A stretch of 64,000 bases of DNA, taken from NCBI GenBank assembly GCA_018417955.1, contig JACTVC010000017.1, positions 1,178,001-1,242,000 of the forward strand. The letters run 5' to 3'. The notes under the pieces are model-generated. The model was not told where the DNA came from. It ran no database searches and saw only the letters and a program-made list of their open reading frames with translations. The stretch comes from Laccaria trichodermophora (Eukaryota > Basidiomycota > Agaricomycetes > Agaricales > Hydnangiaceae). This document shows, piece after piece, positions 2,300 through 63,357 of this stretch. The first letter of the stretch is position 1. Each line of letters opens with the position of its first letter. Both the position numbers and the translations under genes were made by a program.

Positions 2300-2640
2300 T
2301 ATGACAATAGGAATGGGGAGATGGTTGTTGAAGAGATGGCACTGTAACACAAGGACCGCTCGTTCGTTTGGCGCGTATAAGAGCGTCCCAAAAGCGCATC
2401 GATCGTGGCTTTAAAACAAACCAAAGAACGAAAGGGGCGACGAGAATCTCGCCGAGAACGGACAAAATATGTTCATTTTGGTCATACCAGGCTGAACGAG
2501 GCGAAACACAGCCAATAGGTGACCGTTTGAGGAGTTTAGGGAGTCCAAAGAAAGGTGTAAATGAGGGCTTCCCAGTGCAAAAAGGATGAGAGCGATCCGT
2601 GCGTCGGTCAGTGAGATATGACAGGGCATTCAGTAGCTGC
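2300..2640. repeat. Direct repeat R1 flanking the TET/KDZ transposon
   Basis: About 300 bases (CTGTAACACAAGGACCGCTC... through ...GAGAGCGATCCGTGCGTC) match 15985-16275 in the same orientation at roughly 85% by eye. R1 lies just outside the left terminal inverted repeat, and its partner lies just outside the right one. It has no coding potential I trust. It could be an independent interspersed repeat present on both sides by chance, or the remains of an older composite structure. Confidence 0.7.
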
Positions 2641-2660
2641 CCAATGGAAGGATAGTAGTT

Positions 2661-2945
2661 CACATGGTCAATTGTTCAATGGACCATAGGGCTACCCCAA
2701 TGGGCCCAATCATAGTTGGCACTATTTGGCCCTAGTTTGGCCCAATGTCTGTGAGACGTTAAGCACGCATTGTTGGGGCCAAGGTAACAAAGCTATGAGA
2801 AGCATAATTGGGCCCAATGAGGGATACACAAAACAAATTGGGCCCATTGGGCCCAATATTCCAAAGCTATTAGTTAAGCTATCTTGCATTGTTGGGCCCA
2901 ATATTTAATTAGGCTATATTGCAGTTGGGCCCAATGCTCGGCGTA
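2661..2945. repeat. Left terminal/subterminal repeat zone with TTGGGCCCAA motifs
   Basis: After the inverted repeat there are at least five full or near-full copies of the 10-bp palindrome TTGGGCCCAA (about 2701, 2808, 2839, 2894, 2927). Clustered palindromes in subterminal DNA are typical of transposase binding sites. The same motif is clustered at 15745-15880 and in the palindromic element at 57684-63357. A short CCCTAA run (2966-2981) lies just inside. Confidence 0.7.
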
Positions 2946-3255
2946 ACAAATGCCAGGACTGCCGGAACCCTAACCCTAACCATCCCTGTCCAGCCGAAAC
3001 GAACGGTACGATGTAATTTGGTCCGATGACATCGCCTCTGGCACAAAATTTGATACACGTTGCAAATACCGTCAGTAGCATCTCATCCATACATCAATAT
3101 ATCCATATCGGCCCGAATTCCCATTAATCGGTTGAATTCGTTTTGGGTAATAGATAATAGCCGGACATGTGACAGCCACCCTGGATGCATGGATAGCATG
3201 AGGCATGCTGTATATAAGACAATTTATTTGCATTGAAAGCTCGCCACTCAACGAC

Positions 3256-4621
3256 ATGGAGGAGCAGTTGACGGCATTGGAGGCAGTCACCGACGACGTC
3301 TCCACCTACCTTGCCGGTCGTCTTCGGCACAAATTGTTTGACTTTCCGAATGATTATCCCGCCGATTCATTGTCTCAGGGACTCGTTACCCACTGTGAAC
3401 GAGCTATTGCCGTGATCGCCGAAGCCTGGACAAACCCGCCAATCGTGGTCAACTGGGACATTGACGATTATATCGGCATCATTGGAAAGCAGCCAACGGG
3501 TACGTGTTACCATGGACTCAGTCGAGGGCAAAAATGGACTCACTCTTCTGTACCAGGCACTTGCATTCTTATGGAGACGGCCATTGCTTCCAAGTTCCCT
3601 CCCGCATTTCCGGAGCACATTGATGTCGTCGAGGGAAACCCTACAAGAGTCAATGACCGAATGGGGCATATCCTCGCCTGGTATCTTCCGGGGATTTTGT
3701 CGGAAGAACTACAGGTAATTAAAATCAGCCTGTCATTACCAATTGACTAATTGTAATTGAGGCTCGAATCCGAACGGCTGTGGAATTACTTCACCCCTTG
3801 CTGCAGGTACCTGACAAAAGCAATGGCAACTGGAGGAGCGATCCGAGATATTATCGGAATATATGCTTTTGCAAGTACCCTCCAGGTATTGTCAATCTCG
3901 TGCCGTTATGGTATCAAGCTGGGCATGGGGTAAGTGTCCAAAGTCAATCTCGGGTTATTTCTTTCTGAACAGCACCCAGCACGACGGAAGTTCGTTACAT
4001 GCATCGGCGGCTTTGAAGGAAGATAATGGAGCCGGCGAACGGTTCCTTCGGAAGATAATCGATTTCCAAGCAATTATTGGTGGCATTATGAGTGTCATTC
4101 ACCCGGAGCAGCATTTCGGGGGCCGAGGAGCACTGCTTCGATGTCTCCGTCCTCAATCATCAGTGACGTCTGATAAGGATTGTTTGAAACGGATCATGAA
4201 AGTTTGGGGAACTGCCTTCACGGGTCTGTCGGTAATTAGTGAAAGAGAAACCCCTCTCCATCGGGATGGTCAGAATGCAGATTGGATGTACGACCTTTTG
4301 GTTAATCTGTCCTCCAATGTTGACCCCGACCTTCGGGCGGAGTTACCTGGTATCGGGATTAGATTTCGGTATGGTTCCGGAACAGTTCTGTCAATTCTTG
4401 GGAAGGCGGTAAGGCACGGAGTATCGAGAACGGACACAGACCGATACTGCCTTGCTTTCTTTATGAGAGAAAGGGTCTCTGAACGTTTGGGGGGTGTTCC
4501 ACATGTGGTCATGATGTCTGAAGAGGTGTTTAAGAGATGGCTGTCTCTGGACGAGCCGGATAGGGTCAAGGCGATGTTGCGTATTCAACATAGTGGCTTC
4601 CTTTTACCACTTGAATGCTAG
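3256..4621 (+). CDS. TET/JBP family 2OG-Fe(II) dioxygenase (probable 5-methylcytosine oxidase), possible frameshift
   Basis: The exons read 3256-3714, 3762-3929 and 3973-4621. The last exon holds the double-stranded beta-helix signature. HRD (codons at 4259-4267) is the HxD iron motif. The distal His is in RHGV (4414-4416). An Arg in DRYC (4442-4444), 10 residues further on, is expected to bind the 2OG carboxylate. The spacing and the HGV...DR-x-C pattern resemble the TET/JBP family, which oxidises methylated pyrimidines in DNA. The second intron joins in phase, and the middle exon reads YLTKAMATGGAIRD in the frame that fits. Exon lengths sum to one base too many, so there is either a 1-bp insertion near 3795-3806 or a splice I misplaced. 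The gene is transcribed away from the left terminus and converges with the accessory gene at 4638, leaving only 16 bases between them. Substrate and activity are inferred from family. Confidence 0.78.
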
Positions 4622-4637
4622 ATACAAATTTCATGAT

Positions 4638-5727
4638 TTAAAATTGTGAAAAAATGCGTTCAAACTCTCCCGGCACTCCCGACGACGATAGGTGACGGCT
4701 GTCCAACTCTCGTCGACCTGTGAGTTTGATATGACAAAGAGGTTTGAAGTCTGAGCCTCCAGAATAGGAAGGAATTGGCGTGATGGGGCGAGAGATACGA
4801 TCGGCCGTAGATGTCACCGGCATTGTTGGGGGAGCTGGTTTCCTGGGCCAAGATGTTGGTGCGGTCATTTCGGCGCTGTGGGCCTGCCTGGATGCTGATG
4901 CCATGGGGGTCCGTGAGGTCCCAGCTTGGGCCGACATTGGGGGGGCCACTGACATGGACTTGGCGTCGGTATGCCCCTCATCGGAATCTTCGTCAACTGC
5001 ATCCTCCTCGAACAGCTTGTCGGCATATCTGATAGACCAGCCATCCCTCCACTCATGCTCCATCACCAGGATTGACTTCGTTGAATTCTCAAGCCGATCC
5101 TCGAGGTCATGGAGCCTGTCATAAATGCGATCCAATTCAGCTTTCAAGGTCTTTCTCCCTCGGGCAATGCTCTCCCGAAGGTTCTTCATCCGCTCGATTT
5201 CGGGAGTTGCCGATGAAAGAGGCAAATCTCCACCCATGTGGTAGTTTTGGGAGAGCTGCAACTAACATGATAAACGTCCATCGGGAATAAGCCGTTTACT
5301 TACCATATCGGCATGCAAGGCCACGCCAAATGTTTCCAGGTCATTCCAATCCCGTTCTTTTCCAACTCGATCCTGAATATCTTTTTCCATCCACCAATCG
5401 TCGAGGTAGACTGGAACTAAGCAATCCGGCGAAGTTTGATCAACCACCCAGTCAATATCAGGCGGGCCAGACTCCCTCACACAAGCCTGGAGGAACATCG
5501 GGATGTCATATGCAAACTCCTCGATGGCATGCGATCCGAGCGCCTTCTGAATGAAATCCTGTTATGTATTTAGCCTTGAGCGGTGCAAGATCCTTCGGAC
5601 TTACCAGCTCCCCCCTGAACAGGGAGAGCCATATCTCCTTTTCATTTTCAGACATATTCGGCTGTTCCTTCCATGCCTTGGTGGCAGCTCGGCAACGAGA
5701 ACTGATCATGTATACTAACATCTGCAT
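4638..5727 (-). CDS. Accessory coiled-coil protein of the TET/KDZ element
   Basis: Three exons on the minus strand (5605-5727, 5304-5558, 4638-5261) join in phase to 333 residues if translation begins at the ATG at 5727. The middle exon contains a conserved-looking stretch with YDIPMF, GPPDIDWVV and DDWW. The last exon has a helical, heptad-like region (about residues 140-185), an acidic patch, then a Ser/Pro-rich disordered tail. An in-frame TGA (5737-5739) lies 9 codons upstream of this ATG. The frame above the stop (...LFTPRQLEA) also looks protein-like, so the true start may be further upstream and this TGA a nonsense mutation. It lies directly downstream of the transposase gene in the same direction, so it may be a separate gene or a detached transposase tail. 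No function is assigned. Confidence 0.65.
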
Positions 5728-5845
5728 GGGGCGGGTTCATTCCATGGCCTCCAGTTGGCGGGGAGTGAAGAGCATGTTGAGATAAGACAATCTAATGCTG
5801 TGCTTCATCGATGGTATAGAAGCCGACAAACATATAACAATAACC

Positions 5846-8800
5846 TTAAATAGCGCCGGAAAGTTGACATTCCAATAACGCCTGCACGTGGAAACCTCGC
5901 CACATGGCGGCTTGGCGGGAGGCATAGCAGCGCTTACCATCGGCGCTTAGATCCCTCAGATCTTCCCAATATGTTGCCCGCTTCGTAAAATACCGCATTG
6001 TCCATGCCATTTCCATTGGAACCAACTTCGATTCCTCCAGCCATCGGTGATATCTCGCTTTGGTCCGAAGATAGTTCACCCGATATACTGCCAAAGTACA
6101 TAGCAGATGAATGACAATATTTAACGAATGAGATCACTTACGTTCTTCCATATGCATGTCATTCTCTGAATCGCCATGTATATTGAAACCCCAAAACCAG
6201 GGGATATCTTTGTTCCTAAAGCCGGGTTTATTGGGGTGAGATATATTCGGAAGCAGATGAGTATCAGCCTTTTTGATTTCCTTGAAACGTGATAAAATGT
6301 CTTCCGACACAGCTAGACGCTGTAAGGCCCATCGGGCCTGACCATAAACTCGGAGGTGATAAGCCAAATTTCTGTCAATGGCATTGACTTGATCATAGGA
6401 CCGGGTCTTTCCCTTCTTGCTTTCTTCGGTGTTGATCTTTTTTCGGTAAATGAATGACTTGTGCCCGATGTCCAGCCGAATAGATGCGAGTGCATCATTG
6501 GCTTGCGCAACCCGCAAGTCAATTTCTCGTAGGCGAGCCCCCTTCATAGTTTGAGGGAGAGTTGCAAAGCTAGAAGGTACGATGATCTCTCTGTATTCGG
6601 GGAGGCCATTATCATTCTGCGGTGGGTTGACCTGTAATTGCTCAAAGTCCTCGTCATGCTCATACTCATCCATCGTCGGTGGGACTAAAAACCCATCGGA
6701 AAGATTTATCTCCGGAAACAACGTTACCGCCTCTTGCTCAAATGTGTCCAGCCCCTTCACAAATCTCTGCCGACGACGTGCGAGCTCTAGCTTCTGCTCT
6801 GACGTCGGCTTCCTCCCCATCATCCTGGCGAATCGGCTAAGCGTAAGCCTTATTTTAGGGTTAGCGTATCATGTTAGTCATTTTAATCAGCAACATACTG
6901 GGCTTCTTGAAGTTTAATCCCCGTGCCAACCCAAAGCGAGAGTCCCACATTTTGCCGAAGACCTTGTTCTTGTGCCATGAACTCAGCCTGTACCTCCTTC
7001 TGCGTCGGCACTGTTATTACCATTAGTTAACCTTAACCCTGGGTTAAACAAGGGTGACAAACATTTCGGGGCTTTGGCTTCATATATATCCATTGCCGAG
7101 GGATCGAAAATTCGGCGAGCTTGTGCGTCGTTGTCCTGTGAATTCCAATCTTCCAACTGCTCTTCGGAGGCCGTCTCTGAGAGCTTTTTCAACTCTGCTT
7201 CGGCTTCAGGAAGTGCCTTCTGAATTCGCTTCCATCGTTTACAAAGCGACGATACCATGTTAACCAGTTTCTTCCAGTTGTTGTCACCCATGTGGGCATC
7301 AAGAACCTCCGTCCGATGAGCAAGGGTCATGGTCCTTGATATGGTCCTTGATATTCTGCCGACGTGGTTGAGAGTGGACCATAATGTCTCCAGTATTTCA
7401 CCATCTGATTGTCCTCCACCGATAATAAAGGTCGGTGAGAACCTCGCAAGACAAACAAGCTGATGTCCATGAATATGGAATAGGCCGATACCCGGAATTA
7501 TGATTAGCCCGGGATGAACCTCAAGAAACGGAGATTTTTCCACCCGCTTTCGGAAGTTTACAAAGTACTGGCAGTTAACATCATAGACAACGATGCATCG
7601 GGGGGCCTCCGATGCACCAGTGTTCTTCAACGCCTCGCAGAACGCGTAGTCAATATTCATCTGTCTGATATGCCATGGAGCAATGTAACGTCATCCGACA
7701 AACAGCCGAAACTTACCTTTCTCCTTTCTGGAAATCGACCACAGCACCCGGACAATAGCAGCCATGCCTTAGGCAAGCGGCGGCGCCAAGGCCAGTGGAA
7801 TCACAACCTTTATGAATTCTTGATTTGTCGTTCACGGCGTGATGTTCATTGCAAGTCGGTTTCTGTTGTTCATCAGCTGCCGAAACAGTTGTAGGGTTAG
7901 GGTAACCTCACTTCTTTAATCTCGGGAGCCGTGGCCAGATGGTTTGCATATCGGCTTCTTTCTACCATATATCCCTGACCGGACTTTAACCAGACATCGT
8001 CTTCGGGGTGCCTTTGAGCTTTGTGATTACATGTGAAATTGCCATCGAGGACAAACCCCCGGGTATATGGCCATTGTTCCGGGTCGTCCTTCCAATTATC
8101 GGGAAGATTTATTCCAGGCTGTGGACATGCGGCGCAAAACAGAGCCAAGTCACCAGTTTTTGGATCTTCGGCTTTGTGCCCAAAGCCAAACCACTTGTAT
8201 TCCTTGATAACCCTCCATTGCCGGCTAGCTCGCAACAACTCACGGTATCTATCCTAAAACAGGGTAAGTGCCAGCCGAAACTTTAAAGGAGAAAACATAC
8301 CTTCACCAGATTTGGAAATGCTTTGCATGTCATCCGCCGAAGCTTTGAGAAGTAATGAAGTGCCGAAGTTTTGCATTCGAGGTTTTCCAAAAGGTAGTCA
8401 TCAAGCACCTGAAATGAAAAGGCCGTTCGAGGAGTATCGGAGGTGGATGGAAAGAGACCCATCCTTAAAAGCTGTATTTCTTTGGATGGTGCACTGGCAC
8501 ATGTGCAAAAAGACGTCGGAAGCTGATGAACGCCATTGGTATGGACGTAGGTAAATACTCGATGTCCATCAATCATGGATACCGGAGGATCAGGAACTTC
8601 GGTGTCATTGTAAAGGCCCCGGGAAGTCTCGTCGGCAATATCTTCATAGTCTACCTCTTCGTCGTCGGGTATTGTCGGCTCTTCCAATTGCTCGGCCTGA
8701 GTTCCCCTATGGCCCCAGCTTTCGCAGTTAATGGAATCTGCATCCGACGCATCCCATCGTTTCCCGGGACAGGGTACACCGTTATGGCCAAGATGTAAAA

Positions 8801-9360
8801 TTGATCCGGCCTTCCATAACCAAGATGGTGAGAAGTAATCTCCCGACCAGTATTCAATTCTATGAAAAGGATGTCGTCTATGAGTAGTCCGGCAACAGTC
8901 AGTACATAATACTGGACTGCCCAAACAACAGCTACATCTCCAGGTTGCCACACGGATTTGACATGTTTCACAAGTCAAGCCTTCTGGCGGTGCTTCCCTC
9001 CGAAGTACCTCATCGATATAAATCCGACGACGTTTCTCCCAGTCTCTCAGATAATCGTTAGTTGTCTGTTCAAAGGGTCAGCTGTGTTACTTCAAAGCTT
9101 GAACAACCCACACTGCTTCCATGATTTGGAAATACATTAGGTATGAATTCCCTGTATTCTTGGTCATTTGCTTCAGAGTTTAACTCTACTGGGGGTAACG
9201 CAGTATGCCGTTTGGTTGGAGACTTTGAGGGAGACCGTGAAGGAGTGGGTGAGACCTCATTTGCAGGAAAAACTGTGACTGGTCGGAAGCCTCTGCGGTT
9301 CTCGACGAAGTTTAGATGCTTCAAGGAGCCGATGACATTGCGACACCTGTTGGTGGACAT
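5846..9360 (-). CDS. CxC2-type KDZ transposase, full length, 8 exons
   Basis: Exons on the minus strand are 9136-9360, 8301-9065, 7912-8253, 7717-7862, 7063-7664, 6899-7010, 6142-6848 and 5846-6087. They sum to 3141 bases with all phases compatible, giving 1046 residues. The N-terminus is disordered. It is followed by the CxC2 cysteine cluster (first Cys about residue 107, with repeated CxxC and a HRRHPFH stretch) that precedes KDZ catalytic domains. The RNase H-fold triad is visible: Asp in VLDGNFT (about 400), Asp in VVYDVNCQY (about 521) and Glu in QSDGEILE (about 582). A helical C-terminal region contains IGHKSF and the WTMRYF-type end of CxC2 KDZ proteins. It should act in the nucleus to excise and insert the element. 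No lesion is seen, unlike the second KDZ copy. It diverges from the AT-hook gene across about 370 bp. Confidence 0.93.
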
Positions 9361-9727
9361 TGTGATGCTCTGGGAACATGATTCAGATGTCGTATACTTT
9401 ATATAACAATCTGAACATCTGATGGAGGGGTTAGAAGTCTCGTCTCAATGATTGATAACGGCTGATCTTCGGACTTCAGGGGGTAGCTACTACGGCGTTT
9501 GATGCTGTTTATAAGAATACCTGTTCAACGACAGATCTGTATGAAGAAAGCCTTTTCATTAGCAGTTCGAATAATGCTTTGCATTGAACTTGTACTGAAA
9601 ACATTCTGCTTTTGGCAACAACATGGACTAATCAAGTAACCGCACCTTTGTTTGTTTGGTTCATCTCTCTTGACGTGGCAAGAACATTATTCTTTACTGG
9701 ATCACCATCTCCTCGGATAAATACCCA
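9361..9727. promoter_or_regulatory. Divergent intergenic region between transposase and AT-hook genes
   Basis: These 367 bases separate two oppositely transcribed genes of the same element and must contain both core promoters. I see short AT-rich stretches (for example TTTATATAAC near 9399 for the minus gene) but no element I can define with certainty. Confidence 0.45.
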
Positions 9728-12468
9728 ATGGCCACATCCTCATCGAATTATCTGATACCGATTGCTTCTGATTCGGCTGATGGGGAAGACTTCTCTGACC
9801 CAGAAGTTCAAACCAACGAATACACTGCGGCAGCTCCGTATGTCTGGGAGACGTGGCAGATTGAAATTCTAAACCACTATCTTCCATTTTACAAAGCCAA
9901 CAAAAGTGTCAAACAAAGGACCGCTGTGTTGGACAAGACATTTCGGAGGATGAAGTCCAAGAGGGACATTCCTGATTCAGAAGTCTCGGGTCTCCGGAAG
10001 GTATGTAGATCCTAAATGGAAACTGGCTGAATGCTTACTTCGGTATTGAGGCAATGCGGCAATGGTATAGTCTCAAGGCCAGAGTTCGACAGCCGAAGCA
10101 ACACAAAATTCGGGGCGTCAATTGGAACTTTCGGACCGTGGCTGCCTTGCTGAAGAAAGAAGAAATCAAGCAAGCAGAAGTGGAACTCGCCGGTGGGCAG
10201 CCTGTGAAATTTGGTAGCTATCAGACCGGGCTGAATCATGTTTTACGAAACATGGATGATGAAGAGCTGAATGAGCTGAAGGTTACTGCGGCGAAATGGA
10301 ATGCCGAGGGACCGCCGGAAGAAGAGAAAAATCGGTACCATTTCATCACTCTAATTGATAGTCCGACTGCTTATCTATTGGTGACAGTATGTCTGTAAAG
10401 CATGCCCCAAAGTTCACCAAAGCCTTTGCCGAAAAATGTTTCAAACAGCTTGGTGCACGGGTTCTTATCTACTGGGGGTCTATGGATACTGAGGGGGGCC
10501 TCGTCTCAGCACGGTTTGATTTTAACAATGAGCTGGGAGGCGGCACGGCCTACAAGGATATGTTTAATGATGCTCCTGTAACGGATAGAACCTGGGGCAA
10601 ATATTTGGAGAGGGCATATAGAACATCCGAAGAGCAGCCGATTCTACATCTACAGCCAAGAGGAGCCCTCATGGAACTTGAGGTGGATCAAGATGGAGAG
10701 CCGATACTTCCCGAAGAAGCGACGTGGCCTTCGGATCTCACAGGAGAAGCAACGATCAAGTGGCAAAAGGCACTGCTTCGGTCTTACCTCGGTGCCCATT
10801 ACGGTATGTTCCTGTTATCCTACCATTCGAAGCTTACCTTATTCACCAATAGCTCTCGCAACCAAGGATGGAACTCATCGTGTCCCATGGGCCAATGTTA
10901 TAAAGGCACCTGAAGATTTCATTTCCGCCGAATATTTACCCGATTACGAGTGTATGGATAAGGAGCCGTCACATCTCACTGTTGTTAAGGTTCGAAAGCT
11001 TTTACGATTTTGGTTGGCAAGGCAATTGTCGGGCCTCGTAGCATTTCGGTGGAAGTCGGTGATGTTTGCTGGTGAAATCGTCAAGGCCGAGCCTCCGAAG
11101 AAAGGCAAGACAATAGCTGCCCCTGCGACTGGCAAAACAGGGAAACAACCAACTGCGAAAGGTCGGCCGAAGAAGAAATCGAAGGCGTCGGTGCACTTTA
11201 TTGCTGCTGATGATGATCTCCCTCCACTGATACAGAAGGAAAAGATCAAGCCTCGACCAATTAAAAAGCCAAAGGTTGTTGAGGACCCTGACATGGACAG
11301 TGGGGAAGACTTTCACTTTCACGATGTTGACCTTTTTGCCTTTTCGGATGATGAGCAGATCAATCAGTTCGGTGATAAGCCAGTCAAGGGAAACAACACC
11401 AGTGGAATCTCCGAGGAGCCCCATTCCCTCTGGAATACCTTTACTGACAAGCTACCGGAATACAAATCCTGGTCGCCGGACCGGATCCAGACTGAGTTCC
11501 AAGTGTTTCGGGGCTGGGCAGAATCCTCAGGACTATTCCAAGCAAACGGTGGTACCGTCGGCGGCAGTAGTGCCGAACATGTTGGAGGCAGTACCATCGG
11601 AGGAGCGACTGCCAATGAGCTCGGACTCAGCATCGGCGATACACTTCTGGCTTCCAGGGACATAGCCCCAACCGACGATGACGAAGCATCAGCTACAAAC
11701 CAAGCGTCGGCTCTGAATCAGTTCAATGCTACTTCCTCTCCCTCCGACGAAAGAGCAGATAACATCCAAAAAGCTGTCGCCTCAAGTAAGGAAGACACCT
11801 TTGCCAGGAGCCTGGCTAGCAATCTTTCCGTAACAACCTTGCCTTGTTCCTCGTCTGTCGGTGCTGTCGGTTCATCAATGGCCGACGCCGATACTTGTTC
11901 TGCAGTACCTATGGATGGAGTCATCCAGATAAATCCGACAAAAAACGTCTACACATTACCGGAAAAGAATATTGATAGTTCCGTCAGACCAATGTCCAAA
12001 TATTCTACACCCCGTCTCAAAGATCTTTTCAATTCGTTTCGGCAGCTTGCCGCTAGAGGACCATCGGGCAATGACAATGTCGGTCCAGATATCCCCAGAA
12101 TGACTGATGTAATTCAGCATGCCCCAGAGTCAGCCCCATTACTTCGGCCTGCGGAGTTTACTGGGTCGCCGGCGATGTTGCCATCGGCTGCATTGAACAT
12201 GTCATCCGACGAAGCCCCTAACACTCATCGCCCGGCGAAGCGCCCAGCCAATACCTCCTTGCCTGTTGATGGAATGCAGACAAGAAAACGAAAGGCAGAA
12301 CAGGAGGCCCCTGGCTCATCGAAAAGGGTTACCAAGCCACCAAGCAAGCTTCCAGTCGAGGTGGCAAAGACCAGTGAAACGAAGCCGACGAAAGCTAGAA
12401 AGACATCCGGGGGATCTGTGAATCCACCGAAGCGTGGCCGAGGAAGGCCGAGAAAAAAGGCGACTTAG
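9728..12468 (+). CDS. AT-hook protein of the TET/KDZ element
   Basis: Exons 9728-10000, 10051-10334, 10388-10803 and 10853-12468 join in phase to 862 residues. The first 300 residues look folded: a helical segment with WETWQIEILNHYLP, then a region with GARVLIYWGS and DFNNELGG. After about residue 420 it is low-complexity and Ser/Thr/Ala-rich, with basic stretches (GRPKKK near 430) and a C-terminal AT-hook (RGRGRPRKK, the last 12 residues). AT-hooks bind the minor groove of AT-rich DNA, so a nuclear DNA-binding role is likely, perhaps in target choice, element recognition or chromatin state. Neighbours are the transposase (divergent) and the Zn2Cys6-like gene (convergent, 166 bases away). I do not recognise the N-terminal domain by name. 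Confidence 0.85.
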
Positions 12469-12634
12469 TCATTGTAGATTAGTTACTATTCCGTCGGACT
12501 CAAGGTTTCGTCGGCCATTAGGGCTTCATCCAAAACAATCGTTTGTCAGGCTTCCTTCTTCATCGGCTAAGGTTATAATATGGTTAGGGCTTCGTCGGAT
12601 ACCCACTTGTTTCATTGGCGCCATTTGCCTTGAC

Positions 12635-14955
12635 TCATTTCCCATCCAAGGCATCCCAAAAAAAGACAATAAATTTCGCTACCTTCAGTGTAGATTCCAT
12701 TTCGGACATTGAAGGGAGTGGTGCTGATAACCCACTGGTCACGCCAGCCGATGATTGAGGCTCCTTTCGTCGTCGGGGAAGGGGAGCAATGCGACGAGTC
12801 GACTTGTCCTCGGCGTTGACGTCCTCGGGTTGGGCAGGCATTGTTGAAGGATCCGTCATGGTGTTGGGAGCCGATCGCGATGTGCCAGTGGTAGGATTCA
12901 TGTTGGATGGACCGGCGGTGGGGATTAGTGGAGCTGACGCCAATCTGTCCATTTCCTGCCGACGTCGTTCCATCTTCTCCTCGTAGTCGCCCCTGTTACC
13001 CTTTGCCTGGGCAAACGCAGCGGTGAGAAACTCAAAGCTGAGTGCCTCCACTCGGCCGATCCTCTCATCCAGCTTGCAGCGCTCAAGTTCGGAAAGGCGA
13101 TTGGAGATGTTGGTAGTGCGACGATGACCTTCCTGAAGGTCTTTGTTGACATCGTCGATGAAGCCGTTGATAATGACCTCCATATTGGAGGCCAAGTCGA
13201 CTGCCTTTCTCCCCTGGTACTCCGACGCAATCCTCTGCTCCATATCGATCATCTCTCCTCTGATCGCGTTCAGCCCTCGCTCGACGGCGATGGTCGTATC
13301 CCCCCCATCTACCGCGTCTCCAGCATCCTCCAGCTGTTCAATGCGTGCCGACAACGCGGCCAGGACTTTGGTCGTAAGGTCTTGCTTTTGCTGGAGGTCC
13401 GAAATTGTCGCCTTGTGGATCTTCACTTGTTCCTCCAACTCAGCTATGTTCGTGTCCTTTTGCCGAAGGCTTGTTGCCGAAAATGCGTCGATGCGGGAGT
13501 TGGCGTCCCGGAGCTTCTCCTTGAGTCTTTCAAGCTCGGTTGTCTGATGCCTTTGATGGAGCGAAATGTTGTCCAGCCGATCGGTGAAGGGATCCGATAT
13601 TTGGGGTGGGGTGCTAGACCCATCGTTGAGGCCTGACAAGAGTGCATCTCCTGTTGAAAATATAAGCCACTTGCGATAAATAAATAAAAATTCAACTTAC
13701 TTGGAATTTCCTGGTCATGTCCAGGCCGTATGCTTCCCTCTCGAATGGATTCACTTCTCCGCCTCATCACCCTGACAGCCGGCTCAGACTGTCCCCTGTT
13801 CCCTGCTAGCTCACCAATCGATTTCGGTGGAATTGGCGAAATCCCCTCGAATTTGGGATTGCTGTATACCGTCATCTTCTCCCCGAGAAGATGGGTGCCA
13901 GTAGACTTGAATCCTGACGGCTTCGATCCCGAAGGAGAGGGCTTCGCGGCGGTGTTGGGCTTCTTGCCCGATTTCTTCGGCTCAACCTTCTTTGCAGATT
14001 CCCCCTTCTCGCCGCTACCCTTGGTTGTCGATTCTCCTTTCTCACCCCCTCTACCCTTGGTCAGACTACACCTTTCCTTCCGCCCATTGCATCGGTCACA
14101 AGCAGTTCGGCCTGCTGCGGTGAGGAGGCAAGGTTGCCCCGCATTCCTACACGACTGGCAAACCCCCTGTGGGTGAGGCCGCTTCGGGGTAGAATGATTG
14201 CCCCCATCGCCTCCCTCATCCCCGGAATCCACCTCCGCCGCGGACTTGATCCTCACTTTCTTTGTCACTCTCGTCGGCCTTTTCTTTGTCCCCTCATCCC
14301 GCTTCTGGTCTCCCCCCTCCCCCTCTTCCTCCCCGTCTTCTTCTTCTTCCCCCTCTGCATCCTCCTCTGCATCCTCCTCCTCCTCCTCCTCCTCCTCCTC
14401 CAATTTACGTTTGGCTCCTCTGGTGGTGGGCTTCGGAGTTTCATCCAAGTTTGTACCAGTCTCACGGCCCTTCCCCTTCGCATTCTCCTGATTAGATGGT
14501 TTGGCGATGACTTCGGGCACGTCGTCGCCGGTGGCATCCCATGCGGCGAGGAAATCTTCGTAGATCGGTTTAGCAAGGGGTTCGGTGATGACGGCCCAGT
14601 TAAAAGAGCCCTCTTGAGTTCGGAGGACCTCTTGAAGAATTCGAACCACGAGGGGGTCAAGGTCGGCGGTTTTGTCCTTCCCTGTCGTTTTCAAAGCACT
14701 AACGTAATATTGCTACCGGGGTTTAGTGTTGGTGCAATTGATAACTGCTAAGCCACTTACCATCATTTGCCGCATCATTACCTCCTTCTTGAGCCTATCA
14801 GAAGAGTTCGCCTCGCGGTATTCACCTTTGAACCACTTGACGATCTTGCCGGTGACTTCTGGGATTGAGGCAATGATGCCTTCCGCTTGGTAAACTGTCA
14901 TCAGGGCTTCACCGTATCCTTTGGGAAATTGGAATTGAGTTAGGTGAGCAGGCAT
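12635..14955 (-). CDS. Coiled-coil protein with Zn2Cys6-spaced cysteine cluster
   Basis: Exons 14761-14955, 13701-14712 and 12635-13650 sum to 2223 bases (740 residues). The N-terminus (PKGYGEAL..., about 65 residues) looks globular. A glutamate-rich tract encoded by (CTC)n on the plus strand follows at about residues 168-200. Six cysteines with spacing CX2CX6CX9CX2CX6C lie at about residues 250-281. That is the spacing of fungal Zn2Cys6 binuclear clusters, although the surrounding basic pattern is not classical. Basic Ser/Lys/Gly-rich linkers lead to a long C-terminal coiled coil (about 430-560). It is probably a DNA-binding oligomer working with the transposase, which is inference. Many agaricomycete cysteine-cluster proteins of this layout have no known role. 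Confidence 0.82.
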
Positions 14956-15115
14956 GGTGGAGGTAGGTAAATATGAGAGGAACGCGACTTGGATGTTGGT
15001 TGAAGATAAAGGAATCACCGTGGGAGTAACGAAAATCAACATTGCCTATTTCGGATTCATCACATTTCTTTCGGAACACTGCATCTTTCAATTGTCCATT
15101 CTACTTAGCCAGCCG

Positions 15116-15668
15116 ATGTCTTTCCCCCCGAGTTCAGGTAAGTCGCCGAAACTCCCAATTTACAGTTACTGATAGTTTTTCATTACAGACGATTTGCTCA
15201 AACAGCTCGCAGATCGAGCCGATCTACGACATACTCCAGCCGAGGGTTTCAACAACAAAGGTACCGCCTCGTCTATCGATGCTATTTAACATCTCATTCT
15301 TCTCTTCCAGTAGACTCTTCATCGTCAAATGCGGGGGAGAAATCTCACTCCTCGTGGAATAAACAATCTGTAAGTTGCAATGTTTCAAGTTAACTGCCGG
15401 TTTTCAATTGGAGCCAAAGATGGCCTCATTTTTTGACGTAGTGTTGCCTGATGCCGGAAGACTTACAAACCCACTGGAATACGCCCGAATAGCCCACAGA
15501 GTGTTGCATCGGGAATACGAGGAGGGTTTGAGAGCTCGAGATGCTCTTTTGGAGGCAATGGCACACGTGGAGGATCAGTTGAGGCAATTGGACACTATGA
15601 TCATGCTGAAGGAAGAGGAGCTTCGGATCGAAGCAAGCATTGAGAAGGCAGAGAAATCGGCGTCGTAG
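15116..15668 (+). CDS. Small coiled-coil protein of the TET/KDZ element
   Basis: Four exons (15116-15137, 15189-15260, 15311-15369, 15420-15668) sum to 402 bases with matching phases, giving 133 residues. Residues 1-50 are polar and disordered. The last exon alone begins with ATG and encodes a helical, heptad-rich chain of 82 residues. It contains LEYARIAHRVLHREYEEGL and ends in a charged tail. There is no catalytic motif. The 5' introns are assigned from splice sites and phase only, so a start at 15420 is possible. It is the last gene before the right terminus and may be a structural partner for the coiled-coil proteins of the same element. Confidence 0.65.
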
Positions 15669-15744
15669 TAGTGACCTCCCCCCGTCTTCCTATGTATCTT
15701 TCGGCCTAACTTTTCGTCGGTCCAGCTTATGATCACATGTTAAA

Positions 15745-15904
15745 CAGCAATTGGGCCCAATGTTTCGGGGTATTTCACAATTGGGCCACCCCATCTCATC
15801 TTAAGGTAAAAGCATGCATTGGGCCCACCTTTATTCAATAATGTTTAGATAGAATTGGCCCCATTGGGGTAGCTCTATGGTACATAGGTACAATTGACCA
15901 TGTG
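15745..15904. repeat. Right terminal/subterminal repeat zone with TGGGCCCA motifs
   Basis: It contains CAATTGGGCCCAATG (about 15749), a second diverged copy, GCATTGGGCCCACC (15816), and the right terminal inverted repeat CCCCATTGGGGTAGCTCTATGG...CAATTGACCATGTG. This mirrors the left end of the element in reverse orientation. Confidence 0.7.
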
Positions 15905-15949
15905 GAGTACCATTGAACTATGATGTGACGTATGAATACTTGTGGATAT

Positions 15950-16280
15950 GACATGTACAAGTCACATGTAAATGGCTGTTGGAGGGATGGTGCTGTAACA
16001 CGAGAACCGCTCGCCCGTTTGACGCGTATAAAGGCTTCGCAGAAGCGCATTGACCGTGGCTTTAAACCGAGCTAAAGAACAAAAGGAACGACGAGGATCT
16101 CGCCGAGAACGGACGAGACACGTTCATTTTGGCCATGCCAGGTTGAACTAGGTGAAACGCAGCCAATACGTGACAGTTTGGCAAGTTCAAGGGGTCCAAA
16201 GAAAGGTGTGAACAAGGGCTCCACAGCGCAAAAAAAACGAGAGCGATCGGGGCGTCGGTTGGCGAGATATGGCATGAATA
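15950..16280. repeat. Direct repeat R2 (partner of R1)
   Basis: It matches 2300-2640 in the same orientation, including CGCTCGCCCGTTTGACGCGT, CTCGCCGAGAACGGAC and GGTCCAAAGAAAGGTGTGAA. It lies immediately outside the right end of the TET/KDZ transposon. No gene is seen between here and 16755. Confidence 0.7.
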
Positions 16281-18744: not shown

Positions 18745-19019
18745 ACTAGTGGCTACCACTTTCTATCATATAACCCAGGCTTAAGCCTAGAGACCCAAAT
18801 CTATAACACTGAGATTTTTATGAAAGGCATTTCAATACATGAGCCTAAGCCTTTCAATCATTAAATTGCCTGGGATTTCTGATAAAATATGAGAAATTCT
18901 CTATGGGCATTTCATAAGTCTGTCCAGCCATCTCAATGATCATTTCATTGATATTTCATTGCGATTTTTCAATAGATACCTGGTATCTTTCATTGGAAAA
19001 TTTCATTGATACCTTGGAA

Positions 19020-57261: not shown

Positions 57262-57683
57262 TCAGGCATACATCATGTCTCCCTCATCGTCAGTCTCCAA
57301 GTTGTCCTCATATTCCTTAACAGCATCTGCAAAAGCTGAGATAGGTACAGTAGGTATATTTTTGAGAGCAGCAGCAGGCGCGCCTGCATGGAGACTAAGT
57401 GAAGTGATTCAAAATGAGTTGAATATCAATGGAGCAGAAGGAGAGTACATTACCGTCTGTAATTGTACAACTTGTGCTGCAGACGCCCCAAAAGATCGTG
57501 CTTATGTGTGTGCTCCCCAAACGACAACAACGTAGTAATGTGTTCGAGGTACACTGGCTTGTAGTCGTCTGCGTAAAAGGAGACATCGGTCTTTATTCCT
57601 GTTGCCTATTCGTCAATGTTTGCCTTGATCTGTTTGAGTTCAAAGTGTTAGTAGATCAGGGCATTCAGTAGATACACTATGGA
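57262..57683 (-). pseudogene. DUF6532-family gene, 3' part (split by palindromic element E)
   Basis: On the minus strand the exon after the intron reads KANID-E, then a TAG (57606-57608) where Trp is expected, then ATGIKTDVSFYADDY and LLGRLQHKLYNYRR. A last exon ends EDNLETDDEGDMMYA at the stop 57262-57264. These match the C-terminal half of DUF6532 proteins, a large agaricomycete family of unknown function. The 5' half lies at 63358-64000, on the far side of the palindromic element. Confidence 0.75.
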
Positions 57684-57734
57684 ACCATAACAATAGAAAT
57701 TGACAATTGTCCCAATAAGTCATAGGGCTACCCC

Positions 57735-58130
57735 AATGGGCCCAATTACAAAAGACATTATGATACTATACATTGGCCCAACAACATGACAATATGTATA
57801 TTTGATTGTTGGGCCCAACGACAGTGCCACAGTCCAAGCTAAGGGTTTATAGATTGGCCACATGGCTTAAATGGGGGTAATTTTGGCTGTTGATATATGA
57901 CGGTATTAAGGTACCATTGATAGTTGGGCCCAATGAAGGGAAATTGTTAAGGGAGATGGTTGGGCCCAATGGCCCAATTATTAAGCTACGGTTGATGGTT
58001 GGGCCTAATGTAAGGTATTTGTTAAGGGAACAGGTTGGGCCCAGTGGTAAAATTTCAATGCTATGGCTTGTAAGTTGGGCCCATGCCATGATATAAGCTA
58101 TAGTTCATAGGTTAGCCCAATGATTATTTG
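57735..58130. repeat. TTGGGCCCAA cluster, left subterminal zone of element E
   Basis: At least five exact or near-exact TTGGGCCCAA copies (about 57736, 57810, 57924, 57959, 58033), with partial ones between. The right side (63120-63310) has fewer copies. Confidence 0.75.
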
Positions 58131-59035
58131 AATTTTGCGGGTGGGCTTTGGTCTGGTAAACCCGTGGGTCTGCTCCTGTTCTGTTGGACCCACAGCCGCA
58201 CAATTGTGCAATTACACCTGCGGGTTAGCTATTGTGCAGTTACCCCCACAGGGTAGTTCTTGTTCCATTACCCCCAGGGGTCGCCATGTGGGCCAGATCA
58301 TGTTCTGTTACCCCCGCGGATTGACAATTGATCCATTACACCCTCAGGCTGGCTGTTGTTCATTACCCCCATGGGGCAGCTCTTGTTCCGTTAGCCCTGT
58401 GGGTCGCCACACAGGCCAGATTGTGTTCCATTACCCCACGGGTTGACAATAGGTCCATTACACCTGCGGGATCTTATTCCGTTACACCCATGATGTCCAG
58501 CTCTTGTTCTCTTAGACCTGCAGAACCTTCTTCCATTTGGCCCGCGGGTTTCCAATTACAGCAACGGACCTTTTGTGGCTCCCCCGCGGGTCTCCGATTA
58601 CACCCATGGATTACCTGCTGCTCTGTTACACCTGTGGCCACCCACAGACCACCTGCTGCTCCTTGACCAATTGGCCCTCTTCCATCAGCCCCCCACCCAT
58701 GGGCCACGTTTGCAGCTGGCCTGCAAAATGGACCAACAATTGTGCCTTTACATTCAGAGACCATTATTCTGTTACACCCGTGGACCAGCAATTGTGCTGT
58801 TTCATCCACGGACAAGCACTTGTTCCATTACACCTGTGGGCTGCGCTCTCATCCGCAGACCTGCTCTTTTTCTGTTACCCCCATGGACCAGCAATTCTTT
58901 TATCTGCAGACCGACGGATTACCTACCACTCCATTTCTGCGGACACCCATTGTTGCTGTTGGACCCATGGGCCACACCATTTGTTAAGCCCATTGGTCTG
59001 TTACATCTGCAGGCCACCAGCTAGAGCTCCACGGA
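58130..59035. repeat. Degenerate tandem field, present only in the left half of element E
   Basis: Irregular units of roughly 50-70 bp carry GTTCCATTACCCCCACGGG-like phrases. No counterpart is seen in the right half, so it was gained on the left or lost on the right. Open frames in it are repeat translations. Confidence 0.65.
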
Positions 59036-59039
59036 CATG

Positions 59040-60115
59040 AAAATCTGGATTTGTATTTAACATGCTGAATGTCATTGCCCCGAAAATGCGGCTGAAAGAA
59101 TGTCCGGATTTGTGATTAACTTGGTGAACGTCACTGATCCGAAAATGTGGCCGAAAAAACATCCAGATTTGTATTAGTGCAACAATGTCCGAAGTTTCAG
59201 ATGTAATTTTTACATGGACCAGACAACCCCCCATGGAATGCTCTGAAGTCCGAAATTTTTTAAGTTGCTTCCATCCGGATATAATAATCCCCATAGACTG
59301 CACCAATGTCCGAAATTTTGGATGTAATTTTGACAGGGGCCAGACAACCCCCATGGAATGCTCCAATGTCTGAAATTTATACCTGAAGTACCTGAAAATG
59401 CAGTCACAAAAACATCCGGATTTGTATTTAACATGCTGAATGTCATTACCCCAAAAATGTGGCTGAAAAAATGTCCGGAGTTGTAGTTGACTTGGTCAAT
59501 GTCACTGCTCCAAAAATGCAGCCAAAAAAACATCCGGATTTGTATTTAACATGCTGAATGTCATTGCCCCGAAAATACAGCCGAAAAAATGTCCGGATTT
59601 GTGATTAACTTGGTGAACGTCACTGATCCGAAAATGCGGCCAAAAAAACATCCGGATTTGTATTAGTGCAACAATGTCCAAAGTTTCAGATGTAATTTTG
59701 ACATGGACCAGACAACCCCCTGCGGAATGCTCTGAAGTCCGAAATTTTTTAAGTTACTTCCATCCAGATATAATGATCCACATAGACTGCACCAATGTCC
59801 GAAATTTCGGATGTACTTTTGACAAGGCCAGACAACCCCCATAGAATGCTCCAATGTCCGAAATTTAGTACTTCAAGTACCCGAAAATGCGGCCAAAAAA
59901 ACATCCGGATCTGTATTTAACATGCTGAATGTCATTGCCCCGAAAATACAGCCGAAAAAATGTCCAGATTTGTGATTAACTTGGTGAACATCACTGATCC
60001 AAAAATGCGGCCAAAAAAACATCCGGATTTGTATTAGTGCAACAATGGCCAAAATTTCGGATGTAATTTTGACATGGACCAGACAACCCCCCACGGAATA
60101 CGTTGATGTCCGAAA
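59040..60115. repeat. About 490-bp tandem units, left arm of element E
   Basis: Recurring phrases are AACATCCGGATTTGTATTAG, CATGCTGAATGTCATTGCCC and GACCAGACAACCCCC. The inverted, longer array is at 61075-63110, where full units start near 61090, 61579 and 62068. Confidence 0.8.
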
Positions 60116-63100
60116 TTCTAGACTACAAAACTTTGTAGTGTCTGCTTTTTAGACTACACAATTTTGTAATGACCAGTTGAACTCAGGCAGAACTCTCTCA
60201 ATTCTTAACCGATTTGGATGTTCTTGGGCTCGTTTTGACAGGTAAACCCATGTGGTTGTGGGTACAGGTACTCTACAGGTCATGTATGGGCCACTTGTCC
60301 AATATTTATAGGTTTTTTAGTGTCCTTGATCATGAATGAGTATATGGGTTCATGGGTCTACAGTTGAAAGAGTGAGAAGGGTGGACATTTGCCATTTCTG
60401 TATCATTGGTTTATTATGAATAAGTACATAGATTCAGGGTGCTATAGTTGAAGGAGTGATAATGGTGGGCATTTTGCTATTGCTTTCACTGTCTGTGTCA
60501 CCTCTTCAACCATACATCCCCATGAACATATGTACTTATTCATTGATGTCTGGTCTCCCAAACTTGAAAGTTTGTAGTCCACTTTTCTGACATATAATTT
60601 GTAGTGTCCTTCACTATGAATAAGTACATAGGTTCATGGGACTATCATTGAAGGAGTGAAATGGATGGACAATTTGACATTCCGGTATTTCACTTAGTTT
60701 TAAGATTGAACTATGTCATTCTCACTCCTTGAACCATATCTCCATGAACATATATATACTTATACATAGTAAATCAATGATCCAGCAATTGCAAAATGTC
60801 CACCCTTTTCACTCCTTCAACCATAGACCCATGAACCCATATACTCATTCATGATCAAGGACACTAAAAAACCTATAAATATCGGACAAGTGGCCCATAC
60901 ATGACTTGTAGAGTACCCGTACCCACAACCACATGGGTTTACCTGTCAAAACGAGCCCAAGAACATCCAAATCGGTTAAGAATTGAGAGAGTTCTGCCTG
61001 AGTTCAACTGGTCATTACAAAATTGTGTAGTCTAAAAAGCAGACACTACAAAGTTTTGTAGTCTAGAATTTCGGACATCAACGTATTCCGTGGGGGGTTG
61101 TCTGGTCCATGTCAAAATTACATCCGAAATTTTGGCCATTGTTGCACTAATACAAATCCGGATGTTTTTTTGGCCGCATTTTTGGATCAGTGATGTTCAC
61201 CAAGTTAATCACAAATCCGGACATTTTTTCGGCTGTATTTTCGGGGCAATGACATTCAGCATGTTAAATACAAATCCGGATGTTTTTTCGGCTGCATTTT
61301 CGGAGCAGTGACATTGACCAAGTCAACTACAGCTCCGGACATTTTTTCAGCCACATTTTCAGGGTAATGACATTCAGCATGTTAAATACAAATCCGGATG
61401 TTTTTGTGACTGCATTTTCGGGTACTTCAAGTATAAATTTCAGACATTGGAGCATTCTATGGGGGTTGTCTGGCCCCTGTCAAAATTACATCCAAAATTT
61501 CGGACATTGGTGCAGTCTATGGGGATTATTATATCCGGATGGAAGTAACTTAAAAAATTTCGGACTTCAGAGCATTCCATGGGGGGTTGTCTGGTCCATG
61601 TCAAAATTACATCTGAAACTTCGGACATTGTTGCACTAATACAAATCCGGATGTTTTTTTGGCCGCATTTTCGGATCAGTGACGTTCACCAAGTTAATCA
61701 CAAATCCGGACATTTTTTCGGCTGTATTTTCGGGGCAATGACATTCAGCATGTTAAATACAAATCCGGATGTTTTTTCGGCTGCATTTTCGGAGCAGTGA
61801 CATTGACCAAGTCAACTACAGCTCCGGACATTTTTTCAGCCACATTTTCAGGGTAATGACATTCAGCATGTTAAATACAAATCCGGATGTTTTTGTGACT
61901 GCATTTTCGGGTACTTCAAGTATAAATTTCAGACATTGGAGCATTCCATGGGGGTTGTCTGGCCCCTGTCAAAATTACATCCAAAATTTCGGACATTGGT
62001 GCAGTCTATGGGGATTATTATATCCGGATGGAAGTAACTTAAAAAATTTCGGACTTCAGAGCATTCCATGGGGGGTTGTCTGGTCCATGTCAAAATTACA
62101 TCTGAAACTTCGGACATTGTTGCACTAATACAAATCCGGATGTTTTTTTGGCCGCATTTTCGGATCAGTGACGTTCACCAAGTTAATCACAAATCCGGAC
62201 ATTTTTTCGGCTGTATTTTTGGGGCAATGACATTCAGCATGTTAAATACAAATCCAGATGTTTTTTCGGCTGCATTTTCGGAGCAGTGACATTGACCAAG
62301 TCAACTACAACTCCGGACATTTTTTCAGCCACATTTTCGGGGTAATGACATTCAGCATGTTAAATACAAATCCGGATGTTTTTGTGACCGCATTTTCGGG
62401 TACTTGAAGTATACATTTCGGACATTGGAGCATTCCATGGGGGTTGTCTGGCCCCTGTCAAAATTACATCCAAAATTTCGGACATTGGTGCAGTCTATGG
62501 GTATCATTATATCTGGATGGAACTAACTTAAAAAATTTCGGACTTCAGAGCAATCCATGGGGGGGCTGTCTGGTCTGTGTCAAAATTACATCTGAAACTT
62601 CGGACATTGGTGCACTAATACAAATCCGGATGTCTTTCTGGCCACATTTTCGGAGCAGCGACGTTCACCAAGTTAATCACAAATCCAGACATTTTTTCGG
62701 CTGCATTTTCGGGTGCTTGAAGTTCTAAATTTCGGGCATTGAAGCATTCCACAGGGGTTGTCTGGCACCTGTCAAAATTACATCTGAAATTTCGGACAGT
62801 GTTGTAGTAATACAAATCCGGATGTTTTTTCGGCCGTGCTTTTGGAGCAGTGACATTTACCCAGTCAACTACAACTCTGGACATTTTTTTGGCCACATTT
62901 TCGGGGCAATGACATTCAGCATGTTCAATACAAATCCAGATGTTTTTTTCGGCCGCATTTTCGGAGCACTGGTATTCTGCATACTAGTGACAAATCCGGA
63001 CCTTTCTTCAGCTGCATATTTGGGGCAGTGACATCCAACATGGCAACCACAAATCCGGACATTTTTTCAGTCGCATTTTCGGAGCACTTGCAGTCAGCAT

Positions 63101-63357
63101 GTCAACGCTTCGGGTGATCTCTTGAATGCATGTGGCCCAACATTTGGCCATTCTGTAGATTATACTTTGGGTACCTATGGTACCATTGATTATGGCAATA
63201 ACCACATCTGCAGAATATGCATTGGGCCACACATTAATACCATATGCTGTAAACATCCATTGGTCCCAGGTATGGATCCATAGTGTCCATGTGTATTGGG
63301 CCCATTGGGGTAGCCCTATGACTTATTGGGACAATTGTCAATTTCTATTGTTATGGT

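What the first reader, a model, noticed from the sequence alone, without database searches (positions are those of the whole stretch)
2661..15904. Six-gene KDZ transposon that carries its own TET/JBP-type DNA dioxygenase
Seen: inverted ends and an uninterrupted 1046-aa KDZ transposase with D-D-E residues. A 2OG-Fe(II) gene carries HxD, a distal His and a 2OG-binding Arg in TET/JBP context. There are also an AT-hook protein, a Zn2Cys6-spaced coiled-coil protein and two small coiled-coil proteins. Established: TET/JBP genes are linked to KDZ elements in basidiomycetes. Inference: the cargo forms a self-protection module in which the element oxidises 5-methylcytosine on its own DNA, with the DNA-binding proteins targeting it. 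The specific accessory set may be undescribed.
Basis: partly seen in the sequence, partly recalled or inferred. Interest (0 to 1): 0.9.

Follow-up and report, generated by a model that had tools for sequence, protein, structure and literature searches.

The report
Five-gene fungal transposon carrying DNA-oxidising enzyme
This is a jumping gene of a mushroom that carries a conserved set of five genes, among them an enzyme that can oxidise silencing marks on DNA; related jumping genes with the enzyme keep CpG letter pairs that most similar ones without it in the same genome have largely lost.

Summary
Window 2622-15944 (not 2661-15904) is a 13,323-bp DNA transposon with CA..TG ends, no terminal inverted repeat and a 7-bp target duplication, confirmed by an empty site. 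That is the published anatomy of Kyakuja (KDZ) elements, for which TET/JBP cargo and the anti-silencing idea are already in print. It has five genes, not six: TET, transposase (the ORF at 4638-5261 reads as its C-terminus), an AT-hook protein (ATH), a Zn2Cys6-spaced protein (ZNC) and a small protein (SML). New here: the accessory genes are part of the element. The order TET(+) Tpase(-) ATH(+) ZNC(-) SML(+) recurs in lineages differing by about 25-50% of amino acids, with dN/dS 0.09-0.24, while 129 other KDZ places nearly lack them. A palindrome, TTGGGCCCAA, is arrayed in the ends. Two CpG results bear on function: resident copies change mostly by CpG>TpG, so they probably do get methylated; yet 17 of 17 TET+ places keep CpG (observed/expected 0.45-1.15) where 10 of 11 KDZ places without a TET match have 0.16-0.34. 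This fits leaky, lineage-level protection, but it is a contrast of one clade. Targeting of TET by the accessory proteins remains inference.

The parts
2622..15944 (+). whole Kyakuja-type (KDZ) DNA transposon, 13,323 bp, CA..TG ends
   Evidence: copy comparison of ends
2615..2621 (.). left target-site duplication GATATGA
   Evidence: empty site with a single GATATGA on contig C7
15945..15951 (.). right target-site duplication GATATGA
2702..2934 (.). left subterminal array of GGGCCCAA / TTGGGCCCAA (10 of the 13 GGGCCCAA starts in the element)
15751..15826 (.). right subterminal GGGCCCAA sites (3 of 13)
3256..4621 (+). TET/JBP dioxygenase gene, model exons 3256-3499, 3557-3714, 3762-3929, 3980-4621 (403 aa)
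4638..9360 (-).
9728..12468 (+). ATH: accessory protein, model exons 9728-10000, 10051-10334, 10388-10803, 10853-12468 (862 aa); conserved N-terminal ~400 aa, AT-hook cores in the tail
   Evidence: Laccaria bicolor annotated protein, 89% identity over residues 20-410 searched
12635..14955 (-). ZNC: accessory protein with Zn2Cys6 spacing and a helical, by eye coiled-coil-like, C-terminal part; model exons 14761-14955, 13701-14712, 12635-13650 (C-terminus uncertain)
15414..15668 (+). SML: main exon of a small accessory protein (first exons, from about 15116, uncertain)
57657..63385 (+). second, apparently non-autonomous element of the same family with D-lineage ends and 7-bp duplication AGTAGAT

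Best explanation
It is an autonomous-type, TET-carrying Kyakuja (KDZ) transposon of a Laccaria-like mushroom, built as a five-gene unit that is inherited together. Shown by sequence: 7-bp duplications, CA..TG ends, KDZ/CxC2 transposase, a TET of the CcTet family with its active-site residues, and three accessory genes held in fixed order under purifying selection. Inferred: the transposase cuts and pastes; TET oxidises 5-methylcytosine on the element so that source copies stay expressible; one or more of ATH, ZNC and SML bind the TTGGGCCCAA arrays at the ends, either to build the transposition complex or to bring TET to the element's own DNA. Protection is leaky and works at the level of the lineage: single copies are methylated and decay at CpG, while the active lineage keeps its CpG sites.
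For: Exact 7-bp duplications in 8 of 9 copies with both ends fetched; empty site. Pfam KDZ, CxC2, Tet_JBP; CcTet match with HxD, His, Arg and the Asp337 equivalent. Co-occurrence: of 67 Kyakuja-clade transposase places, 59/44/19/14 have TET/ATH/ZNC/SML within 10 kb, and 58/43/18/15 have it on the canonical side and strand (windows, which for SML reach 12.5 kb). dN/dS win against B, unfiltered: TET 0.11, transposase 0.09, ATH 0.17, ZNC 0.21, SML 0.24; frame-shifted controls of TET, ATH and ZNC 1.2-1.6. In TET, transposase, ATH and ZNC win and B are closer to each other than to D, in SML about equally close. TTGGGCCCAA 511 places against 16 for the reversed control; left end CAGGGCATTCAGTAG, up to one mismatch, 130 against 6; 9 of 10 exact left ends on contig C1 have the palindrome within 600 bp inside and 0 of 10 outside. 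CpG observed/expected 0.45-1.15 in 17 of 17 Kyakuja places, 0.16-0.34 in 10 of 11 other KDZ places; the 17 have a Tet_JBP match within 4 kb, the 11 none within 24 kb.
Against: Copies show 208 CpG>TpG of 259 changes from the majority base, so TET did not keep them free of methylation. The CpG contrast is between one clade and its relatives, so codon habit or history could explain it, and one place without a TET match (L062) has 0.81. Lineage H has TET and transposase without the accessory set, and in lineage E the ZNC-like and SML-like genes are not demonstrably homologous. No accessory protein has a recognised DNA-binding fold: no Pfam match for the ATH exon or the Zn-cluster exon searched, only sub-threshold coiled-coil matches for the other ZNC exon, and the structure model was too poor to use (pLDDT 38). 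SML and the ATH N-terminal exons were not scanned against Pfam.
Confidence: 0.66

Rival explanations
1. The accessory proteins are transposition factors only (end-binding and complex assembly, as subterminal-repeat-binding proteins of other DNA transposons), with no tie to TET.
For: The palindrome sits at both ends and is kept in the non-autonomous copies checked (A_C1 and A_C10); the ends are what a transposase complex needs.
Against: Other KDZ transposons nearly lack the accessory genes (2 of 129 places each), so they are not needed for KDZ transposition in general; but that also fits a Kyakuja-specific transposition factor.
Confidence: 0.45
2. The accessory genes are a targeted anti-silencing module, comparable in logic to Arabidopsis VANC: an element-encoded protein recognises an element-specific motif array and brings TET there.
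For: Dense, family-specific palindrome arrays in noncoding ends, as in VANDAL elements (PMC5735166, passages); accessory set found mostly with TET+ Kyakuja; lineage-level CpG retention.
Against: No binding shown; lineage H has TET without the set; oxidised cytosine in Laccaria is enriched on retrotransposons as well as DNA transposons (PMC8889193, passages), which argues against tight targeting.
Confidence: 0.25
3. The accessory genes are passengers or captured host genes that happen to travel with a few copies.
For: No Pfam family over its cut-off for the accessory exons scanned; few homologs found elsewhere, 6 for ATH, 4 for ZNC, 15 for SML, in a word-limited search; some places lie apart from a Kyakuja-clade transposase, 8 of 57 ATH, 7 of 30 ZNC, 20 of 37 SML at 20 kb.
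Against: Fixed order over lineages differing by about 25-50% of amino acids and dN/dS 0.17-0.24; 12 of the 20 stray SML places lie near non-autonomous derivatives of the element.
Confidence: 0.05
4. CpG retention in the TET+ clade reflects codon habit, recent horizontal entry or activity, not TET.
For: Only one clade is contrasted; one KDZ place without a TET match has 0.81; the segments compared are overlapping, not identical, parts of the domain.
Against: The contrast holds after resampling synonymous codons (0.42-1.20 against 0.19-0.37 plus the 0.87 exception); a TET-less KDZ family with copies 99.1-99.8% identical in their longest block still has 0.21-0.27.
Confidence: 0.4

Closest known systems
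TET+ Kyakuja DNA transposons (Kojima 2025, PMC12730594; KDZ named by Iyer et al. 2014, not readable here)
   Same: KDZ transposase, AG-type-like TET, 7-bp duplication, 5'-CA..TG-3' ends without terminal inverted repeats; described from Laccaria bicolor among others
   Different: the text I read does not describe further conserved genes in Kyakuja, subterminal palindrome arrays or CpG signatures; its figures and supplementary tables were not available
CcTet of Coprinopsis cinerea (PDB 7vpn, 7w5p, 8jkk)
   Same: dioxygenase domain, HxD, distal His, Arg, Asp337 equivalent
   Different: Asn at the position of Gly331, where PMC12730594 reports Gly or Ser in Kyakuja TETs; N-terminal part diverged
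VANDAL/VANC anti-silencing of Arabidopsis (PMC5735166, PMC10398659)
   Same: element-specific short motif at high density in noncoding regions together with element-encoded, non-transposase proteins; a transposon that counters DNA methylation
   Different: VANC is one protein and its binding is shown; here the enzyme is a dioxygenase, the motif is a palindrome at the ends and no binding is shown; sequence relation was not tested
PHISTA (TET+ Harbinger of rusts; PMC12730594)
   Same: a TET+ transposon with a third, uncharacterised protein
   Different: other transposase superfamily, TA duplications, other fungal class
KDZ transposons of Pleurotus ostreatus (PMC7641404, passages)
   Same: intact KDZ transposases preceded by a CxC2 cluster
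   Different: no TET or accessory genes mentioned in the passages I saw

Membership tests
Kyakuja (KDZ) | 7-bp target-site duplication | tested here: met
   8 of 9 copies with both ends fetched and an empty site
Kyakuja (KDZ) | 5'-CA..TG-3' ends without terminal inverted repeats | tested here: met
   ends CAGGGCATTC..ATACTTGTG; inverted repeats lie about 40 bp inside
Kyakuja (KDZ) | KDZ transposase with CxC2 cysteine cluster | tested here: met
   PF18758 and PF18803 over cut-off
Kyakuja (KDZ) | position inside Kyakuja, not Zisupton or Dileera, in a transposase tree | not tested
   no named reference sequences of the three groups were at hand
AG-type TET/JBP | HxD, distal His and Arg of the 2OG-Fe(II) centre; CcTet relative | tested here: met
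   alignment to 8jkk/7vpn, E 7.6e-34 and 8e-34
AG-type TET/JBP | Asp at CcTet 337 | tested here: met
   hrdgqnadwmyD against hrdtsgpiegmD (numbering from PMC12730594)
AG-type TET/JBP | Gly or Ser at CcTet 331 | tested here: not met
   Asn in the window copy; PMC12730594 reports Gly or Ser among Kyakuja TETs, so I call it AG-type-like, not a strict member
PE-type TET/JBP | HxE instead of HxD | tested here: not met
   HRD
fungal Zn2Cys6 cluster | C-x2-C-x6-C-x(5-12)-C-x2-C-x(6-9)-C spacing (recalled) | tested here: met
   ZNC of window and B and of D fit; the E gene has x11 in the first loop
fungal Zn2Cys6 cluster | match to a Pfam Zn cluster profile | tested here: not met
   no Pfam match at E 0.1 for the exon 13447-14694; so filed only as Zn2Cys6-spaced
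VANC-like anti-silencing system | element-encoded protein shown to bind the element's motif and remove methylation | not testable with these tools
   needs binding and methylation assays

The most novel reading that the evidence does not exclude
TET+ Kyakuja elements encode a complete, self-addressed anti-silencing machine: accessory proteins read the TTGGGCCCAA arrays at the element ends and bring the TET dioxygenase there, and this leaves a measurable fossil, the retention of CpG over the TET+ clade while KDZ relatives without TET in the same genome have lost most of theirs.
Probability: 0.22. Interest if true: 0.85.

Novelty: new variant of a known kind. Interest (0 to 1): 0.6.

Why it matters
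Transposons that carry TET enzymes are known, but whether the enzyme helps its own element is not shown (so stated in PMC12730594). This family offers a test in one genome: KDZ transposons with and without TET side by side, conserved partner genes, a candidate address motif, and a CpG signature that predicts which lineages escape methylation damage. If the accessory proteins target TET, they would be a natural, sequence-addressed DNA demethylation system made by a transposon.

Tried and rejected
Rejected: six separate genes. Rejected: accessory genes as general KDZ factors. The all-five canonical count of 12 includes contig C34:1995174; there a piece of another Kyakuja transposase lies between ATH and the ZNC and SML hits, so I count 11. 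Led nowhere: AlphaFold of the Laccaria bicolor ATH homolog (mean pLDDT 38), so no fold search was run; profile comparison of lineage-E ZNC-like and SML-like proteins with ours (probability 7% and 0.3%); the ends of lineages E and H; the E left side runs into long repeats. Two papers (Iyer 2014, Chavez 2014) are not held. That the accessory set is undescribed therefore rests only on the paper searches (listings) and on the text of PMC12730594. The species was not fixed: ATH of L. bicolor S238N-H82 (P0001) matches no listed place exactly (best 94% over parts, on contig C67), so 'Laccaria-like' is an inference from names. Places were taken by hand from the listings: one place per locus, exon fragments merged (ATH 118 matches to 57 places, ZNC 69 to 30, SML 38 to 37; the 76 TET matches were left unmerged, though a few are halves of one gene). 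The Pfam KDZ list shows 150 of 182, of which 129 lie more than 1.5 kb from a Kyakuja-clade place. Near-identical copies are not independent, so the Fisher values are descriptive only. The codons were filtered for local identity of 30% or more; one search gives the unfiltered values.
Full report
What it is. The window is contig C9:1178001-1242000 of a 59.0-Mb fungal genome in 77 contigs. The left 1,340 bases of the element match five near-identical places including the window itself, twelve places at 78-80% over the first 575-577 bases, and three places at 69% over a later part (the tool calls its counts lower bounds). Copies were fetched, some only in part. The near-identical and the three B copies (64-82% in DNA by block) follow the window copy along its length, with insertions; of the C7, C21 and C31 copies I held only part.

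Ends. The element is 13,323 bp with GATATGA on both sides. Exact 7-bp duplications are found in 8 of 9 copies with both ends fetched; B_C9b has none. A repeat copy on contig C7 has the window's insertion site empty, with GATATGA once. CA..TG ends, no terminal inverted repeats and 7-bp duplications are what PMC12730594 gives for Kyakuja, including families from Laccaria bicolor. Of that paper I read the outline, parts 1-5 of 7 of the text, a term search and the figure legends section.

Genes. Translated comparison of window and B and a splicing script give TET (+, 403 aa), transposase (-, about 1,379 aa), ATH (+, 862 aa), ZNC (-, about 690-740 aa) and SML (+, about 110-135 aa). The ORF at 4638-5261 joins the transposase by an intron in the models of win, B and D; in the win-B comparison this part has dN/dS 0.36 against 0.09 for the whole transposase. 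An annotated Laccaria bicolor protein of 878 aa (LACBIDRAFT_298016) matches the searched ATH region at 89%, which supports that gene model; ZNC and SML also have annotated L. bicolor relatives. ATH relatives at 27-28% occur in Suillus and Coprinopsis. The AT-hook-type tail GRGRPRK is present in win, B and the L. bicolor protein but not in my D model, so the conserved part of ATH is the N-terminal domain, whose fold is unknown.

TET. The domain aligns with CcTet (E 8e-34) and keeps HxD, the distal His, the Arg and the Asp337 equivalent; Gly331 is Asn. By what PMC12730594 reports, Asp337 is essential for 5mC and not for 6mA, and Gly331 takes part in 6mA recognition, so 5mC oxidation is the better prediction.

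The accessory genes belong to the element. With lists Kyakuja-clade transposase places have TET within 10 kb in 59, ATH in 44, ZNC in 19 and SML in 14; 129 other KDZ places have 5, 2, 2 and 2. The side and strand are nearly always the same. Places farther than 20 kb from a Kyakuja-clade transposase are 12 of 76 for TET, 8 of 57 for ATH, 7 of 30 for ZNC and 20 of 37 for SML; 12 of these 20 lie near A derivatives, whose right ends keep a piece of SML. Copies are related, but all five genes in canonical order stand in 11 places from lineages whose transposase fragments match the query at 97-100%, 90%, 83%, 81% and 77% (less the one). In the D lineage all five genes were read. In lineage E TET, transposase and ATH are in the same order, followed by a minus-strand gene and a plus-strand Zn-cluster gene whose homology to SML and ZNC I could not show. 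In lineage H the set is missing and another minus-strand protein stands there. Unfiltered dN/dS between win and B is 0.09-0.24 in the five genes, against 1.2-1.6 in shifted-frame controls of three of them; synonymous sites are near saturation (pS 0.61-0.71), so the values are rough.

Subterminal palindromes. GGGCCCAA occurs 13 times in the element, 10 at the left end and 3 at the right, and not in the 2,621 bases to its left; 10 of the 11 in the rest of the window lie in the second element at 57657-63385. B, D and the two A copies checked have the same arrays; the E stretch has none and the H stretch two, both internal. TTGGGCCCAA has 511 places in the genome against 16 for the same letters reversed. 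The 15-base left end has 130 places with up to one mismatch against 6. On contig C1, 9 of 10 exact left ends have the palindrome within 600 bp inside, none outside, and these explain 31 of 48 palindromes there. This is the pattern expected of binding sites for an element-encoded protein. It resembles the motif arrays of VANDAL elements (PMC5735166, passages; PMC10398659, abstract and outline), but subterminal repeats are also common as transposase sites (recalled), and I cannot tell the two apart.

CpG decay in resident copies. Over 10,514 columns covered by at least three of the five near-identical copies, changes from the majority base are CpG>TpG in 28 of 33 (window), 23 of 29 (C23), 18 of 22 (C7, 6,426 columns), 101 of 128 (C21) and 38 of 47 (C31), 208 of 259 in all; a change shared by two copies is counted twice. 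Per site this is about 58 times the rate of other C>T/G>A changes (208 at 1,116 CpG positions, 13 at 4,043 others). The NCG contexts differ little (0.17-0.24), and so do TET, transposase, ATH and noncoding parts (0.038-0.044); ZNC has few sites (0.026) and SML was not covered. This looks like deamination of methylated CpG. Pairs of A copies, which are older, show ratios of 1.8-4.1 and B pairs 9.9-13.2. A KDZ family without a TET match shows the same bias on few changes (ratios 18-77, 3-10 CpG changes a pair). So TET does not keep resident copies free of methylation, and this result counts against full self-protection.

CpG retention of the lineage. In coding parts of the transposase domain, CpG observed/expected is 0.45-1.15 in 17 of 17 Kyakuja places (median 0.68) and 0.16-0.34 in 10 of 11 other KDZ places; the exception, L062 (C34:1913389), has 0.81. 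Resampling synonymous codons leaves 0.42-1.20 against 0.19-0.37 plus 0.87. The 17 have a Tet_JBP match within 4 kb, the 11 none within 24 kb; a PE-type TET that this profile misses is not excluded. The places were chosen by me for diversity, the 11 also for open frames, and the segments overlap but are not the same. A family without TET match with copies 99.1-99.8% identical still has 0.21-0.27, so youth alone does not give high CpG. The four A copies, without TET gene, have 0.63-0.72, the second element of the window 0.56, and a flanking repeat 0.46; the A values would fit help from TET in trans, which is not shown. The Mann-Whitney value (2e-4) treats related places as independent and should not be taken as a test; the contrast is one clade against its relatives. 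I found no report of such a contrast in the searches (listings only).

Reading. The kind of element and the anti-silencing idea are known. What I add is the five-gene unit, the shared ends and palindrome arrays, and the two CpG results, which together suggest a protection that is leaky for single copies but real for the lineage. In Laccaria and Coprinopsis 5hmC and 5fC are enriched on retrotransposons as well as DNA transposons (PMC8889193, passages), which argues that TET action spreads beyond the element or is not tightly targeted.

Noticed in passing
57657-63385: A second element of the same family with D-lineage ends, 7-bp duplication AGTAGAT and open frames of at most 176 codons: apparently a non-autonomous copy.
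   Followed up: partly
1-2621 and 15945-16443: The element sits inside another repeat, cut at a tandem array of about 320-bp units; the same repeat lies on contig C7 without the insertion.
   Followed up: partly
18102-18791: Remains of another KDZ transposase with two TAG and one TAA stops.
   Followed up: no
34392-41807 and 24336-27314: Open frames of 2,471 and 992 codons without a Pfam match at E 0.001; CpG observed/expected is about 0.9-1.0 over the first.
   Followed up: no
28686-29399 and 32829-33542: Two 237-codon frames of equal length on opposite strands flank a stretch with regularly spaced TTGGGCC; may be a large inverted repeat.
   Followed up: no
about 7338: 12-bp in-frame tandem duplication in the transposase of the window copy; five other copies are 12 bp shorter there.
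   Followed up: partly
L062 (C34:1913389-1914159): KDZ place without a TET match but with high CpG (0.81), the one exception; KDZ places C77:1327644, C34:2416959 and C34:1848244 have the same or nearly the same score. It could carry a PE-type TET that the Pfam profile misses.
   Followed up: no
L036 and L037 (C28:338000-353600): A TET+ Kyakuja lineage with a different minus-strand protein, by eye possibly HMG-like, where ATH, ZNC and SML would be.
   Followed up: partly
L032 (C20:442500-444149) and further left: Lineage E elements have many repeat units of up to about 200 bp at the left side.
   Followed up: no
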